This document shows positions 32,492 to 38,001 of a stretch of DNA of 46,921 nucleotides, piece after piece. The notes under the pieces are model-generated. The model was not told where the DNA came from. It searched no databases and worked only from the letters and a program-made list of their open reading frames with translations. Every line of letters begins with the position of its first letter. Position 1 is the stretch's first letter. Both the position numbers and the translations under genes were made by a program. This DNA is from a virus: positions 1 to 46,921 of the IMG/VR virus record IMGVR_UViG_3300038701_001111; one strand, written 5' to 3'.

Positions 32492-32713
32492 TCATGCCGC
32501 GTCCTCGGAGGTTTGGGGTTGAGATGCGCGCTCCAGCGCCAGCGTCTCAAACGAAACATTTTGCCCGCGCTTTTTAGCCGCGCGAACGATCTCAGCATCA
32601 TACTTGGCCGGAATCGACCGTCTCTGATGCCATGCCGCAACCGTCGGATATGGCTTGCCAAGCTCGGCTGCCATTTCTTTGAGGGTCGGCCATATGCGGA
32701 AAATACGCTCCAT
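32492..32713 (-). CDS. Cro-like repressor
   Basis: A 73-residue DNA-binding protein, with an HTH in LKEMAAELGKPYPTVAAWHQ near its N-terminus. It diverges from the CI repressor across 72 bases of operator DNA, the defining position of Cro. No ribosome-binding site precedes the ATG, and the -10 box ends only about 8-13 bases upstream, so the mRNA is likely leaderless. Confidence 0.8.
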   Translation of the reverse strand: MERIFRIWPTLKEMAAELGKPYPTVAAWHQRRSIPAKYDAEIVRAAKKRGQNVSFETLALERASQPQTSEDAA

Positions 32714-32782
32714 GCGTAATTATATGCGGTATGCGTTTCGCATTGTCAACGCCAAGCGCATAGAGATGCGTGGTAAACGCAT
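32712..32782. promoter_or_regulatory. Divergent cI/cro control region with ATGCGT operators
   Basis: Half-sites ATGCGT/ACGCAT: direct copies at 32712, 32724 and 32731; a palindrome ATGCG-TTT-CGCAT at 32731-32743; facing copies at 32757-32770; and ATGCGTGGTAAACGCAT at 32766-32782. The leftward promoter is TTGACA (32744-32749 complement) with a 17-base spacer to CATATA, or 19 to TATAAT. CI and Cro compete here to set lysis or lysogeny. Confidence 0.75.
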
Positions 32783-32785
32783 AGA

Positions 32786-33442
32786 ATGAATGATGCGAAT
32801 GAAAGACTTCGAGCGGCCCGAGAGAAGGCAGGCTTCAAGAATGCCTCGGACGCCGCCAGCGCCAAGGGTTGGACGTACAGCACATATGCTGGCCACGAGA
32901 ATGGCTCGCGGCAAATATTGCCGGACGCAGCGAATAAATACGCTAGAGCCTTTGGCGTGTCTGCAAACTACATTCTGTTTGGGACCGGCTCAGAAATAAC
33001 TAGCGTCGAAAGCGACGACACGATCCACACGAACGGAACGTTCATCCCGGTCTATGACGTCCAAGCCAGCGCAGGCTTCGGCGCGCTGGTCGATTACGAG
33101 GAGCAGACGCACAGCCTCGCCTTCCCGCCGGACTACCTTCGCAAATTGACAGGCGCGTCACCGAAGCACTTGGTGATCATCAGCACCAAGGGCGACAGCA
33201 TGGAGCCGACACTGCTGGATGATGACATCGTGTTGGTCGATACGTCAAAGACGCACATGGGATACGAGGGCATGTTCGTTCTTCGCCACAACGACACGCT
33301 GCTGGTAAAGCGCGCGGGTATGGCGCCAAAGCCCGGTCACGTCACTCTGATTTCTGACAACAAAGCCTATCCGCCGGTCGAGGCGCGTCTTGAGGATCTG
33401 CACGTTGTCGGCAAGGTTCTGTGGTACGGGAGGAAGGTTTGA
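32786..33442 (+). CDS. CI-type lysogeny repressor (XRE-HTH plus S24 peptidase)
   Basis: A 218-residue repressor. Residues 5-65 form an XRE HTH (SAKGWTYSTYAGHENGSRQI). The C-terminal LexA/CI domain carries the catalytic Ser138 in GDSMEP and Lys175 in LLVKRAG. The likely self-cleavage bond is Ala96-Gly97 (QASAGFG). RecA-stimulated cleavage after DNA damage would induce the phage. No ribosome-binding site is evident and the start is close to the operators, as in leaderless lambda cI. Confidence 0.9.
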   Translation: MNDANERLRAAREKAGFKNASDAASAKGWTYSTYAGHENGSRQILPDAANKYARAFGVSANYILFGTGSEITSVESDDTIHTNGTFIPVYDVQASAGFGALVDYEEQTHSLAFPPDYLRKLTGASPKHLVIISTKGDSMEPTLLDDDIVLVDTSKTHMGYEGMFVLRHNDTLLVKRAGMAPKPGHVTLISDNKAYPPVEARLEDLHVVGKVLWYGRKV

Positions 33443-33495
33443 TGTCATCCCCCATCCGCCTGCACTGGCCCCAGGAGCTGGTGAGGAAGGTTTGA
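33442..33495 (+). CDS. 17-codon linking ORF after cI
   Basis: Reads MSSPIRLHWPQELVRKV, begins in the cI stop (TGATG) and ends in the next gene's start region. Its last bases repeat the end of cI (GAGGAAGGTTTGATG occurs at both ends), so it looks like a small duplication that carried the stop and ribosome-binding site. Probably acts only in translational coupling. Confidence 0.35.
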   Translation: MSSPIRLHWPQELVRKV

Positions 33496-34124
33496 TGGAA
33501 TGGCTGGAGGCCTTTTCAGCTTGGATTGAGGCTCCTGCGTCCTATAATTGGGTTGCCCTTATTGGAGTGGCCGCAGCCGTGATAACCGCCTTCGCAACAG
33601 GATATTCCGCTAACCTTGATCGGCTAAGTAGGCGAGAGAGGATTACTGCCGAATGGTCCTTTGAGAATGAAGCGGATCGACTGAGGGTAACGCTGCAAGT
33701 CAAGAACCAGACCCAGACGACACTGGATGGCGACAGAATTCGAGTTCGCGGTCCGGTCCGAGATGTTACTCCGGCTACTAGAGAGGCCAAGCATGAAAGC
33801 TGGTCAAACTTTGAGTGCCCGTTTCGATTTGCAGTAAAGCCCGGCGGCAGCGAGACTTTCTCGTTCATAATCGTGCCGGACCCTCAGCTACTCCGCCACT
33901 CAGCGACATCGTGGCTCGGCGGCCCAAGATCTTGGGTGGGCAGATCACTCTGGCGACTGTTTGGCTGGAGATTGGAATTCGGCCCCAGGTTTTCGATCAC
34001 TTCGAGGCTGCGAAGAAGATCGTCTCCGATGCGACCGATCCGCTTGACTGCCGTTAAGAGAATATATGACCCAATGGCAATAAAGATGGCTGAAGCCATC
34101 GAGGCCAAAGCCGACACCAAGTAA
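33495..34124 (+). CDS. Membrane protein co-transcribed with cI (exclusion/defence candidate)
   Basis: A 209-residue protein with an N-terminal membrane helix (WVALIGVAAAVITAFATGY, about residues 19-37) and a following soluble beta-rich domain (RLRVTLQVKNQTQTTLDGDR, PGGSETFSFIIVPDP). The last 70 residues are Arg-rich. GAGGAAGGTTTG precedes the ATG. It lies between cI and a strong terminator with no promoter seen in between, so it should be made in lysogens. This is the usual place of superinfection-exclusion or anti-phage genes. No known family is recognised. Confidence 0.7.
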   Translation: MEWLEAFSAWIEAPASYNWVALIGVAAAVITAFATGYSANLDRLSRRERITAEWSFENEADRLRVTLQVKNQTQTTLDGDRIRVRGPVRDVTPATREAKHESWSNFECPFRFAVKPGGSETFSFIIVPDPQLLRHSATSWLGGPRSWVGRSLWRLFGWRLEFGPRFSITSRLRRRSSPMRPIRLTAVKRIYDPMAIKMAEAIEAKADTK

Positions 34125-34141
34125 GGTTCGATCCCAAGCAT
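33884..34141 (-). CDS. Possible membrane micro-protein antisense to the cI-operon gene
   Basis: Reads MLGIEPYLVSALASMASAIF with a good membrane helix and a Shine-Dalgarno-like GGAGGGTAGCA before the ATG. It overlaps 241 bases of the opposite gene's 3' end, and the strong terminator hairpin would lie in its leader, which counts against it. One of the two overlapping readings is probably chance. Confidence 0.3.
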   Translation of the reverse strand: MLGIEPYLVSALASMASAIFIAIGSYILLTAVKRIGRIGDDLLRSLEVIENLGPNSNLQPNSRQSDLPTQDLGPPSHDVAEWRSS

Positions 34142-34156
34142 TGCTACCCTCCATGA

Positions 34157-34179
34157 ACCCCGCTCCGGCGGGGTTTTTT
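34157..34179 (+). terminator. Strong terminator of the cI operon
   Basis: ACCCCGC and GCGGGGT pair around a TCCG loop and are followed by six T. It lies 33 bases after the membrane protein stop and just before the second operator region, ending the lysogenic transcript. Confidence 0.9.
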
Positions 34180-34231: not shown

Positions 34232-34295
34232 GCGCATTATCTGCGCATATTTTTACGCGCTACGCATTGACAACGCATAACGCATAACGCATATT
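34232..34295 (+). promoter_or_regulatory. Early rightward promoter with tandem ACGCAT operators
   Basis: TTGACA (34267-34272), 17-base spacer, CATATT (34290-34295). ACGCAT half-sites occur at 34262, 34273, 34280 and 34287, the last three in 7-base tandem, with GCGCAT at 34232 and 34243. The same half-sites occur at the cI/cro region, so CI or Cro should repress this promoter, which drives the early genes from 34331. Confidence 0.8.
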
Positions 34296-35513: not shown

Positions 35514-35669
35514 ATGAAAAACCAAAACGACCGCAAGACGCCCGTCTATGACGCTGAGTTCTTCGAGCCAAAGCGCCGCGAGCGCGGGCTTGGTGTCGCT
35601 CCGGTGCTGTGGATGTTGTTCGTCTGTCTGACGTGCCTGGCGATTGTGCTGTGGGGGGTGGTGTTGTGA
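35514..35669 (+). CDS. Single-TM protein, paralogue of 41231 gene
   Basis: A 51-residue protein with a polar N-terminus (MKNQNDRKTPVYDAEFFEPK) and a C-terminal membrane helix (VLWMLFVCLTCLAIVLWGVV). The gene at 41231 has the same layout, and 21 consecutive bases coding for KTPVYDA are identical. Unknown function; C-terminal anchor. Confidence 0.6.
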   Translation: MKNQNDRKTPVYDAEFFEPKRRERGLGVAPVLWMLFVCLTCLAIVLWGVVL

Positions 35670-36883
35670 CCTCTCATGCACTTGATCGCCTCGCCGAACG
35701 GTTCCCCGACATCGCGCCTGCGGACGCAATGTCACAGATCATCGCAGCCATGCGGAACGGCAAGGCGCGGCACGTCGCGGACAGCATCACCGCGGGGAAA
35801 GCGGCCTATGCCGTGATCCTCGAGGGTGGCGCGGTGTGCTTTCCGGTCATGTCAGGTGACGGCGCGGTGATCACTGTTCTGATCGAAGGCATGGACTTCG
35901 ACACCCCGACCGGGCGCATTGCTCTTGAGCGCCCCGGCCTGCCCTACGGCGTCCACCAGCTTGACGAAGCGGCGTATCATTCTGACCCAGCCAAGATGCC
36001 TAGCCTGTCGTCTACACTGGCGCGCAAGCTGCTGTCGCAATCCCCGCTGCACGCCTGGACGGCGCACCCGCGGCTGAACCCGGACTGGCAACCGACCATC
36101 AAGGCCACGTTCGACATCGGGAAGGCCGCGCACGCTGCCATTCTCGGGCGCGGCGCCGGGTGGAAGGTGTACCCGCCCGAGGTTCTGGGCGCAAACGGTG
36201 CAGCCAACACGAAGGCTGCCAAGGAGTTCGCCGAGGAAACCCGAGCGCAGGGCATGGTGCCGCTGAAGCAGGATCAGGAAGACCAGATCCTCGCCATGAA
36301 GGCCAAGATGGCCGAGGCGCTGCTCGAGTACCGGATCGACCTTGACCCGGCGTGCTCCGAGATCGTGGCGCTGGCCGAAGTGGAAGGCGTGCCGTGCCGC
36401 ACGATGATCGACAACGTGCCGCTCGACCCACGCCAGCCGCTCTATGACCTCAAGACGTGCGAGAGCGCCGCGCCTGATACTTGCATGAAGGCCGTTATGA
36501 ATTACGACTATGATGTGCAGGCGCGGCACTACCTGGACACATGGAAAGAGGCGACCGGCGAAGATCGCGCCTTCCGGTTCATCTTTCAGGAGAAGTCCGC
36601 ACCCTTCGAGGTCTGCGTTGTGGAGTTGTCCCAAGACAGTCTCGAGATGGCTGGGCGCAAAGTGACCCGCGCCCGCGAGATTTGGCGCAACTGCGTCCAG
36701 TCCGACTATTGGCCGGGATACCCTCGAGGCGTCCACCAGATCGCCCTGCCTGAATTCTTCCACGGAAAATGGCTCGAGCAGGAGAGCGTGATCAAGGATT
36801 TCCGCCAGCAGACCGGGCGCGACATTCTTGACTTCGCACACCGGTGGCAGGCCCCCGAAAATCACAAGCTCGCAGGAGAGTAA
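35666..36883 (+). CDS. RecE-like PD-(D/E)XK exonuclease fused to an extra N-terminal domain
   Basis: A 405-residue protein starting at GTG in a GTGA overlap. From about residue 110 it reads as a RecE / DUF3799-type nuclease: MPSLSSTLARKLLSQSPLHAW, HPRLNP, FDIGKAAHAAILG, EGVPCRTMIDNVPL and YDLKTCESA (catalytic Asp-x-Lys), then YDYDVQARHYLD. Residues 1-95 form a separate small domain (SHALDRLAERFPDIAPADAM, KAAYAVILEGGAVCFPVM). It would resect DNA ends for the annealing ATPase encoded next. Confidence 0.8.
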   Translation: MTSHALDRLAERFPDIAPADAMSQIIAAMRNGKARHVADSITAGKAAYAVILEGGAVCFPVMSGDGAVITVLIEGMDFDTPTGRIALERPGLPYGVHQLDEAAYHSDPAKMPSLSSTLARKLLSQSPLHAWTAHPRLNPDWQPTIKATFDIGKAAHAAILGRGAGWKVYPPEVLGANGAANTKAAKEFAEETRAQGMVPLKQDQEDQILAMKAKMAEALLEYRIDLDPACSEIVALAEVEGVPCRTMIDNVPLDPRQPLYDLKTCESAAPDTCMKAVMNYDYDVQARHYLDTWKEATGEDRAFRFIFQEKSAPFEVCVVELSQDSLEMAGRKVTRAREIWRNCVQSDYWPGYPRGVHQIALPEFFHGKWLEQESVIKDFRQQTGRDILDFAHRWQAPENHKLAGE

Positions 36884-36885
36884 TC

Positions 36886-38001
36886 ATGATGCACGTTCGC
36901 TTTATCCCGGTCGCCGAATTGAACGATCCGCTGACACTGGCCATCGGCCTGTCCGGTGGATCGGGCACCGGCAAGACCTACACCGCCCTGCTGATGGCGC
37001 GCGGAATCGCCGAAACTGTCACCGGCAAGCCCGGTGCGCCTATCGGTTATGTGGACACCGAGAACCGCCGCGCCCTGCACTACAAGCAGGCGTTCCCGGA
37101 AATGGTGCACTACGACATGAAGGCCGTTGACGACAGCGGCAATATGATCGGCTTCGGGCCGGAACGCTGGATCGAAGTCATCGACGCCGCAGAGGCCGCA
37201 GGCCTGCCCGTTGTGATCCTCGACAGCTTTTCCCACGCATGGGAAGGCGTTGGCGGCGTTCTGGACCTGCACGCGCAGACACTGGACCGGCTGACCGGTG
37301 GCGACGACAGCAAAAAGAACCAGCGCAGCCAACTTGCATGGGCCGACGTGAAGCCCCGGTATCGCCGCCTGATCGACCGGATCGTCCGGGCCAAGTGCAA
37401 CATCATCATCTGCACCCGCGCCAAGCCCGTCATGCAGGAGAAGTCCTCGAAGACCGGGTGGAAGGAAGTCAACGCCCGCGCCACCAAGACCCGCCGCGCT
37501 GATGTGCCTTGGGACCCGGCCAGCGATGGCGATCTTATGTTCGAGATGACGACGATGGTTATCCTCGACCCCGCCGCACCTGGTTGTCCTGTCCACCAGA
37601 TCAAGGTCGCGGACCAGTTCAAGGGCTTGCTCGACCCGAGCCGCCCCATGAATGAGACAACGGGCCGCGCGATGGCGGAATGGGCCAAGGGCCAAGGCGA
37701 TGCGCAGGCGCAGAAGGCTGTGCTGGACCGGGCTCGTGCTGCCGCCCGAGAAGGCCGGGATTCATTCATTGCCTTCTACCAGAGCACCGAAGGCAAGGCG
37801 CAGCGCCCGTTGATCAAGACCATCCTCGAGGAGTGCCAAGGCCTCGCGGACAAGGCCGACGCCGCAAAGGTGGCCGACGACAGCGACAACCCGTTTGGAT
37901 TGCCGCCCGAGGACGACCACCGCCTCACCCCCGAGGATGAAGAGCGCATCCGCCGGGAAATCGAGGAAGAGAACCGCAAGGCCATGGAGGCAGAACAGTG
38001 A
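36886..38001 (+). CDS. Sak4-like RecA-type ATPase
   Basis: A 371-residue AAA/RecA-fold protein with Walker A GLSGGSGTGKTYTAL and Walker B PVVILDSFSHAWEG. It continues with NIIICTRAKPVMQEK and WDPASDGDLMFEMTTM, the pattern of Sak4-type phage ATPases that work with single-strand annealing or recombination nucleases. The C-terminus is acidic. Pairing with the RecE-like gene suggests a phage recombination module. GCAGGAGAG precedes the ATG. Confidence 0.8.
   Translation: MMHVRFIPVAELNDPLTLAIGLSGGSGTGKTYTALLMARGIAETVTGKPGAPIGYVDTENRRALHYKQAFPEMVHYDMKAVDDSGNMIGFGPERWIEVIDAAEAAGLPVVILDSFSHAWEGVGGVLDLHAQTLDRLTGGDDSKKNQRSQLAWADVKPRYRRLIDRIVRAKCNIIICTRAKPVMQEKSSKTGWKEVNARATKTRRADVPWDPASDGDLMFEMTTMVILDPAAPGCPVHQIKVADQFKGLLDPSRPMNETTGRAMAEWAKGQGDAQAQKAVLDRARAAAREGRDSFIAFYQSTEGKAQRPLIKTILEECQGLADKADAAKVADDSDNPFGLPPEDDHRLTPEDEERIRREIEEENRKAMEAEQ

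What the first reader, a model, noticed from the sequence alone, without database searches (positions are those of the whole stretch)
33495..34124. Unrecognised membrane protein expressed from the lysogeny operon
It sits between cI and a very strong terminator, so it should be one of the few products made in a lysogen. It has an N-terminal TM, a beta-rich soluble domain and an Arg-rich tail, and fits no family I know. Genes in this place often block other phages. This is my best candidate for an undescribed defence or exclusion system in the window.
Basis: inference. Interest (0 to 1): 0.75.

Follow-up and report, generated by a model that had tools for sequence, protein, structure and literature searches.

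The report
Orphan membrane gene beside phage repressor
A temperate phage of marine Rhodobacterales-type bacteria carries, directly behind its repressor gene, one more gene for a small membrane protein unlike any in the collections searched; the place is a known site for extra genes made by dormant phages, so shutting out rival phages is a sensible but unproven guess.

Summary
The observation largely holds. A 209-codon ORF (33495-34124 +) lies behind an S24-type cI repressor and ends 30 bp before a rho-independent terminator. New here: it lies between two inverted operator/promoter blocks (OR/pR 32722-32767, OL/pL 34249-34294). That is the slot of rexAB in lambda and bstA in BTP1, a published hotspot for lysogeny-expressed accessory genes. 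Its start overlaps the stop of a 17-codon ORF whose start overlaps the cI stop (TGATG twice), so translational coupling to cI is likely. In relatives the next gene after cI is highly variable (41 families among 63 loci) and enriched for hydrophobic segments (17 of 41 families against 16% background). The protein has one TM helix, predicted N-out/C-in, and a beta-sandwich core (aa 50-128). No homologue was found by sequence in phages, plasmids, IMG/VR, GTDB contigs or 780 alphaproteobacterial genomes. Two cautions. The 'Arg-rich tail' (aa 131-188) has the composition of non-coding frames and is antisense to an 85-codon ORF with its own SD and TM, so the C-terminal third may be an artefact. And nothing beyond position supports defence. 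Verdict: a plausible orphan moron in a known slot; exclusion is the best single guess (about 0.35).

The parts
32492..32713 (-). cro-like small HTH gene, divergent from cI
   Evidence: 73-aa ORF; only weak matches to YdaS / Phage_CI_repr in Pfam and to PHROG repressor families; position opposite cI
32722..32767 (-). OR block with pR reading leftward to the cro-like gene (TTGACA..TATAAT, spacer 19; or CATATA at 17)
   Evidence: 46-nt inverted repeat, 78% complementary, with 34249-34294; hexamers; ACGCATA boxes
32786..33442 (+). cI repressor, HTH plus S24 peptidase
   Evidence: Pfam PF00717 E 6.3e-20, HTH_3 E 7.6e-6; PHROG 4 E 1.2e-49
33442..33495 (+). 17-codon mini-ORF MSSPIRLHWPQELVRKV*, start overlapping the cI stop (TGATG), stop overlapping the ORF start (TGATG)
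   Evidence: sequence read directly
33430..33444 (+). 15-nt exact direct repeat GAGGAAGGTTTGATG, copy 1 (end of cI); includes SD-like AGGAAGG
   Evidence: second copy at 33483-33497
33483..33497 (+). copy 2 of the 15-nt repeat; supplies the SD and ATG of the ORF
33495..34124 (+). the finding: 209-aa single-pass membrane protein (TM aa 20-38, beta core aa 50-128, basic C-terminal third of uncertain reality)
33884..34141 (-). rival antisense ORF, 85 aa, SD GGAGGG, one TM (KD 2.05)
   Evidence: no homologue
33815..34057 (+). alternative + reading frame over the C-terminal third, more coding-like from 33884 on
   Evidence: codon score +0.157 against -0.368 for the annotated frame; no homologue
34155..34176 (+). 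rho-independent terminator closing the cI transcript
34249..34294 (+). OL block with pL (TTGACA-N17-CATATT) reading into the early operon (34331 onward)

Best explanation
The ORF is an accessory (moron) gene in the lambda-type immunity region, between cI and OL/pL, made in the lysogen from the cI transcript and probably by translational coupling to cI. Its product is a single-pass inner-membrane protein with the N-terminus in the periplasm and a membrane-tethered beta-sandwich in the cytoplasm. Most likely it protects the lysogen from other phages at the cytoplasmic face of the inner membrane, by obstructing entry of injected DNA or by binding an incoming phage component. Shown: ORF, operon layout, operators, terminator, variability of the slot. 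Predicted: TM, topology, fold. Inferred only: expression, and the exclusion function.
For: Inverted OR/OL blocks enclosing cI plus ORF. Terminator 30 bp past the stop. Double TGATG overlap and SD at the ORF start. The next gene after cI in 63 relatives falls into 41 families, 17 with a hydrophobic segment against 15.9% of background ORFs, binomial p 8e-5. Start/stop overlap with cI also in L003, L006, L012, L017, L018, L019, L025 and L091. TM and charge asymmetry. Beta-sandwich core predicted twice. Literature: the cI-to-n region of lambdoid phages is a common site of accessory genes such as rexAB and bstA, both anti-phage (PMC7067206, PMC8585504); RexAB-type defence lies downstream of a repressor in P. 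putida prophage P1 (PMC12894663).
Against: No homologue and no hit to any defence family. Slot genes of relatives include families not known for defence, such as VasI-like and TerB-like. No partner gene of RexA/RexB type. Codon usage of the ORF is weak throughout (GC1/2/3 0.53/0.53/0.56 against about 0.6/0.45/0.75 in neighbours) and non-coding-like at aa 131-188.
Confidence: 0.35

Rival explanations
1. A lysogenic-conversion gene with a non-defence role, such as envelope or stress physiology, or tuning of the lysis-lysogeny decision. Same expression logic, different target.
For: Relatives carry VasI-like and TerB-like genes near cI and many signal-peptide or lipoprotein-like genes, which need not be defence. 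Position gives expression, not function.
Against: The best-studied genes at this exact position (rexAB, bstA) are anti-phage (PMC8585504).
Confidence: 0.35
2. The C-terminal third as annotated is not the native protein: an indel (sequence error or decay) near 33884 shifts the frame, so the native product would end at 34057, or the gene is decaying. (Compatible with either function above.)
For: Annotated frame aa 131-188 scores -0.368 bits per codon (coding 5th percentile -0.16); the + frame ending at 34057 scores +0.157. GC by codon position flips at the same point. Chance hits of aa 120-190 in genomes come mostly from stop-containing non-coding frames.
Against: The annotated frame stays open for 79 codons there, seen in only 3.6% of comparable shifted frames. 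It ends 30 bp before the terminator, its last 21 codons look coding, and in AF2 models the tail contributes strands to the sandwich, at low confidence.
Confidence: 0.3
3. The antisense ORF 34141-33884 (85 aa, one TM) is a real gene, alone or overlapping the + ORF.
For: GGAGGG shortly before ATG, TM KD 2.05, coding score +0.09. Antisense overlapping exclusion genes beside a repressor are known in Pseudomonas phage Fc02 (PMC9936078).
Against: No homologue, no - strand promoter found, and its leader would cross the terminator hairpin. A short hydrophobic antisense ORF opposite a charged helix is a common artefact.
Confidence: 0.2
4. Chance or junk ORF, not translated.
For: Weak codon signal and no homologue.
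Against: 210 open codons at 54% GC, SD plus double start/stop overlap, a clean TM followed by a beta domain, terminator placement.
Confidence: 0.1

Closest known systems
lambda rexAB and RexAB-type systems (P. putida prophage P1, CarolAnn gp44/43, Sbash gp30/31)
   Same: position behind the repressor in its operon, before OL; a membrane protein is involved
   Different: one gene, not a sensor/effector pair; one TM rather than a multi-pass channel (recalled for RexB); no sequence match
BstA of prophage BTP1
   Same: single gene downstream of cI, sharing its transcript, closed by its own terminator
   Different: BstA localises to sites of phage DNA replication; here a TM protein with no family match
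P22 SieA / T4 Imm (membrane superinfection-exclusion proteins)
   Same: proposed to act at the inner membrane on DNA entry
   Different: no sequence relation found; different genome position
Pseudomonas phage Fc02 olg1 / gene 10
   Same: small exclusion genes beside the repressor, with antisense overlap
   Different: no detected homology; different gene order

Membership tests
cI-operon accessory (moron) gene of lambdoid immunity regions | same strand as cI, between cI and OL, before the terminator | tested here: met
cI-operon accessory (moron) gene of lambdoid immunity regions | gene content varies between related phages | tested here: met
   41 families in 63 loci
cI-operon accessory (moron) gene of lambdoid immunity regions | expressed in the lysogen | not testable with these tools
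   needs RNA-seq of a lysogen
RexAB | two adjacent genes, DNA-binding RexA and membrane RexB | tested here: not met
   only one sizeable gene between cI and the terminator on the + strand; no Pfam or PHROG match
RexAB | multi-pass membrane effector | tested here: not met
   one hydrophobic segment only
BstA | sequence similarity to the BstA family | tested here: inconclusive
   no Pfam, PADLOC or NCBIfam hit; whether a BstA model is in PADLOC was not checked
Membrane superinfection-exclusion proteins | blocks superinfection when expressed alone | not testable with these tools
   needs a plating assay
Membrane superinfection-exclusion proteins | inner-membrane location | tested here: inconclusive
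   TM predicted by hydropathy only
Ig-like / CBM-like beta-sandwich fold | significant structural match | tested here: inconclusive
   best Z 7.2 and 7.1, within the usual background; model mean pLDDT 45 and 59

The most novel reading that the evidence does not exclude
An undescribed family of single-gene exclusion proteins: a membrane-tethered cytoplasmic beta-sandwich translated as a reinitiation-coupled partner of cI, possibly overlapping an antisense small membrane protein gene.
Probability: 0.25. Interest if true: 0.55.

Novelty: new member of a known kind. Interest (0 to 1): 0.3.

Why it matters
Genes in the cI-OL slot are among the few a dormant prophage makes, and several are anti-phage. 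In relatives of this phage the slot holds many different genes, often membrane or exported and mostly without a Pfam or PADLOC match in the ten checked. It is therefore a defined place to sample for new exclusion or host-conversion functions; this ORF is one candidate among many.

Tried and rejected
Homologue hunts with the ORF: tblastn in phages and plasmids, pattern scans of viral contigs and genome contigs, 395 genomes of one family and 385 of the class. Hits at E<=0.1 numbered as expected by chance (38 of 395, 37 of 385), and the fetched ones were short, often from stop-containing frames. The same for the antisense ORF and the alternative frame. Own-pattern search for TM plus beta-sandwich proteins among 228 loci: only the ORF itself looked right. 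Operator-repeat search in viral contigs gave 7 loci without a cI or ORF relative. Fold searches gave generic beta-sandwiches only (Foldseek, VIA-align); no family was excluded by these. A memory of a similar-looking family of N-TM beta-sandwich proteins in Rhizobiales could not be tested and is not used as evidence.

Full report
Observation. The window is one whole IMG/VR virus record of 46,921 bases with terminase, portal, major head protein, primase/helicase and integrase genes. Its cI relatives in genomes lie in Sulfitobacter, Pontibaca and a Maritimibacter MAG, so a Rhodobacterales-type host is likely. The ORF 33495-34124 is open, starts with ATG, and follows cI (32786-33442), which matches S24 peptidase and HTH models. 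A terminator with a 9-bp stem and T-run follows at 34155-34176.

Setting. A 46-nt inverted repeat, 78% complementary, pairs 32722-32767 with 34249-34294. Each arm holds a TTGACA promoter: leftward to a cro-like gene, with TATAAT, and rightward, with CATATT at spacing 17, into the early operon. ACGCATA boxes recur in both. The order cro-OR-cI-ORF-terminator-OL/pL is that of the lambda immunity region, with the ORF where rexAB lies. Owen et al. call the interval between the repressor and n of lambdoid prophages a common site of accessory loci (PMC7067206) and showed that bstA there is anti-phage (PMC8585504).

Translation. The cI stop overlaps the ATG of a 17-codon ORF (TGATG, 33440-33444) whose own stop overlaps the ATG of the finding (TGATG, 33493-33497). 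A 15-nt exact repeat supplies the same SD-like sequence at both junctions; by my own estimate such a repeat is expected about 0.001 times in a stretch of this size. Reinitiation coupled to cI is an inference from this. In relatives the next gene also overlaps the cI stop, for example in L003, L006, L012, L017, L018, L019, L025 and L091.

Slot survey. Among 63 next genes after related S24 repressors there are 41 families; 17 contain a hydrophobic 19-residue segment of KD 1.6 or more, against 118 of 743 background ORFs (p 8e-5). Next-gene choice was automatic, so some entries may be spurious, and hydropathy does not separate TM helices from signal peptides. Pfam named two of ten slot genes confidently (VasI-like in L011, TerB-like in L019); PADLOC gave one negligible match.

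The protein. TM at aa 20-38, no positive charge before it and four after it, hence N-out/C-in by the positive-inside rule (general knowledge). AF2 without an alignment gives beta strands over aa 50-128 (block pLDDT mostly 60-74 in the soluble-part model) and little confidence beyond. Fold matches are generic beta-sandwiches with Z at most 7.2, which the tool says is common without kinship. No sequence homologue was found. Absence from these collections is not absence in nature, because the two contig scans need near-exact peptides.

Doubt about the tail. Codons 131-188 score -0.368 bits per codon, below 95% of coding 57-codon segments. The frame ending at 34057 scores +0.157 and the antisense ORF about +0.09 over its length. 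Codon-position GC agrees. Against an artefact, the annotated frame is open for 79 codons, which 3.6% or fewer of shifted frames at similar GC achieve if another frame is coding, and it ends just before the terminator. Unless the record has an indel, ribosomes will read the annotated frame. So aa 1-130 are reasonably secure and aa 131-209 are not.

Function. Exclusion is the best single guess because of position and membrane location, but a non-defence conversion role is about as likely. The finding is an orphan gene in a known kind of place, worth an assay, not evidence of a new system.

Noticed in passing
window 33884-34141 (-): 85-codon antisense ORF with GGAGGG SD and one TM, overlapping the C-terminal third of the finding.
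   Followed up: partly
window 33430-33497: 15-nt exact repeat creating a 17-codon ORF between cI and the next gene, with TGATG at both ends.
   Followed up: partly
L006 4583-5595: cI-coupled gene with CPIC..CQHC cysteine pairs (zinc-ribbon-like) followed by two small multi-TM ORFs in the same slot of a related phage; no Pfam or PADLOC match for the two tested.
   Followed up: no
L011 4671-5264: VasI-like (T6SS-associated, Pfam PF11319 E 8e-19) exported protein directly behind cI.
   Followed up: no
L033, L039, L045, L050, L054, L058, L062, L064, L079: A recurring family of about 280 aa with hydrophobic N-terminal segments 9 nt behind an S24 repressor; function not looked up.
   Followed up: no
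window 35609-38001: Exonuclease VIII-like gene (PHROG 412) followed by a gene of unknown function (PHROG 1366), downstream of pL: an early recombination-type operon.
   Followed up: no
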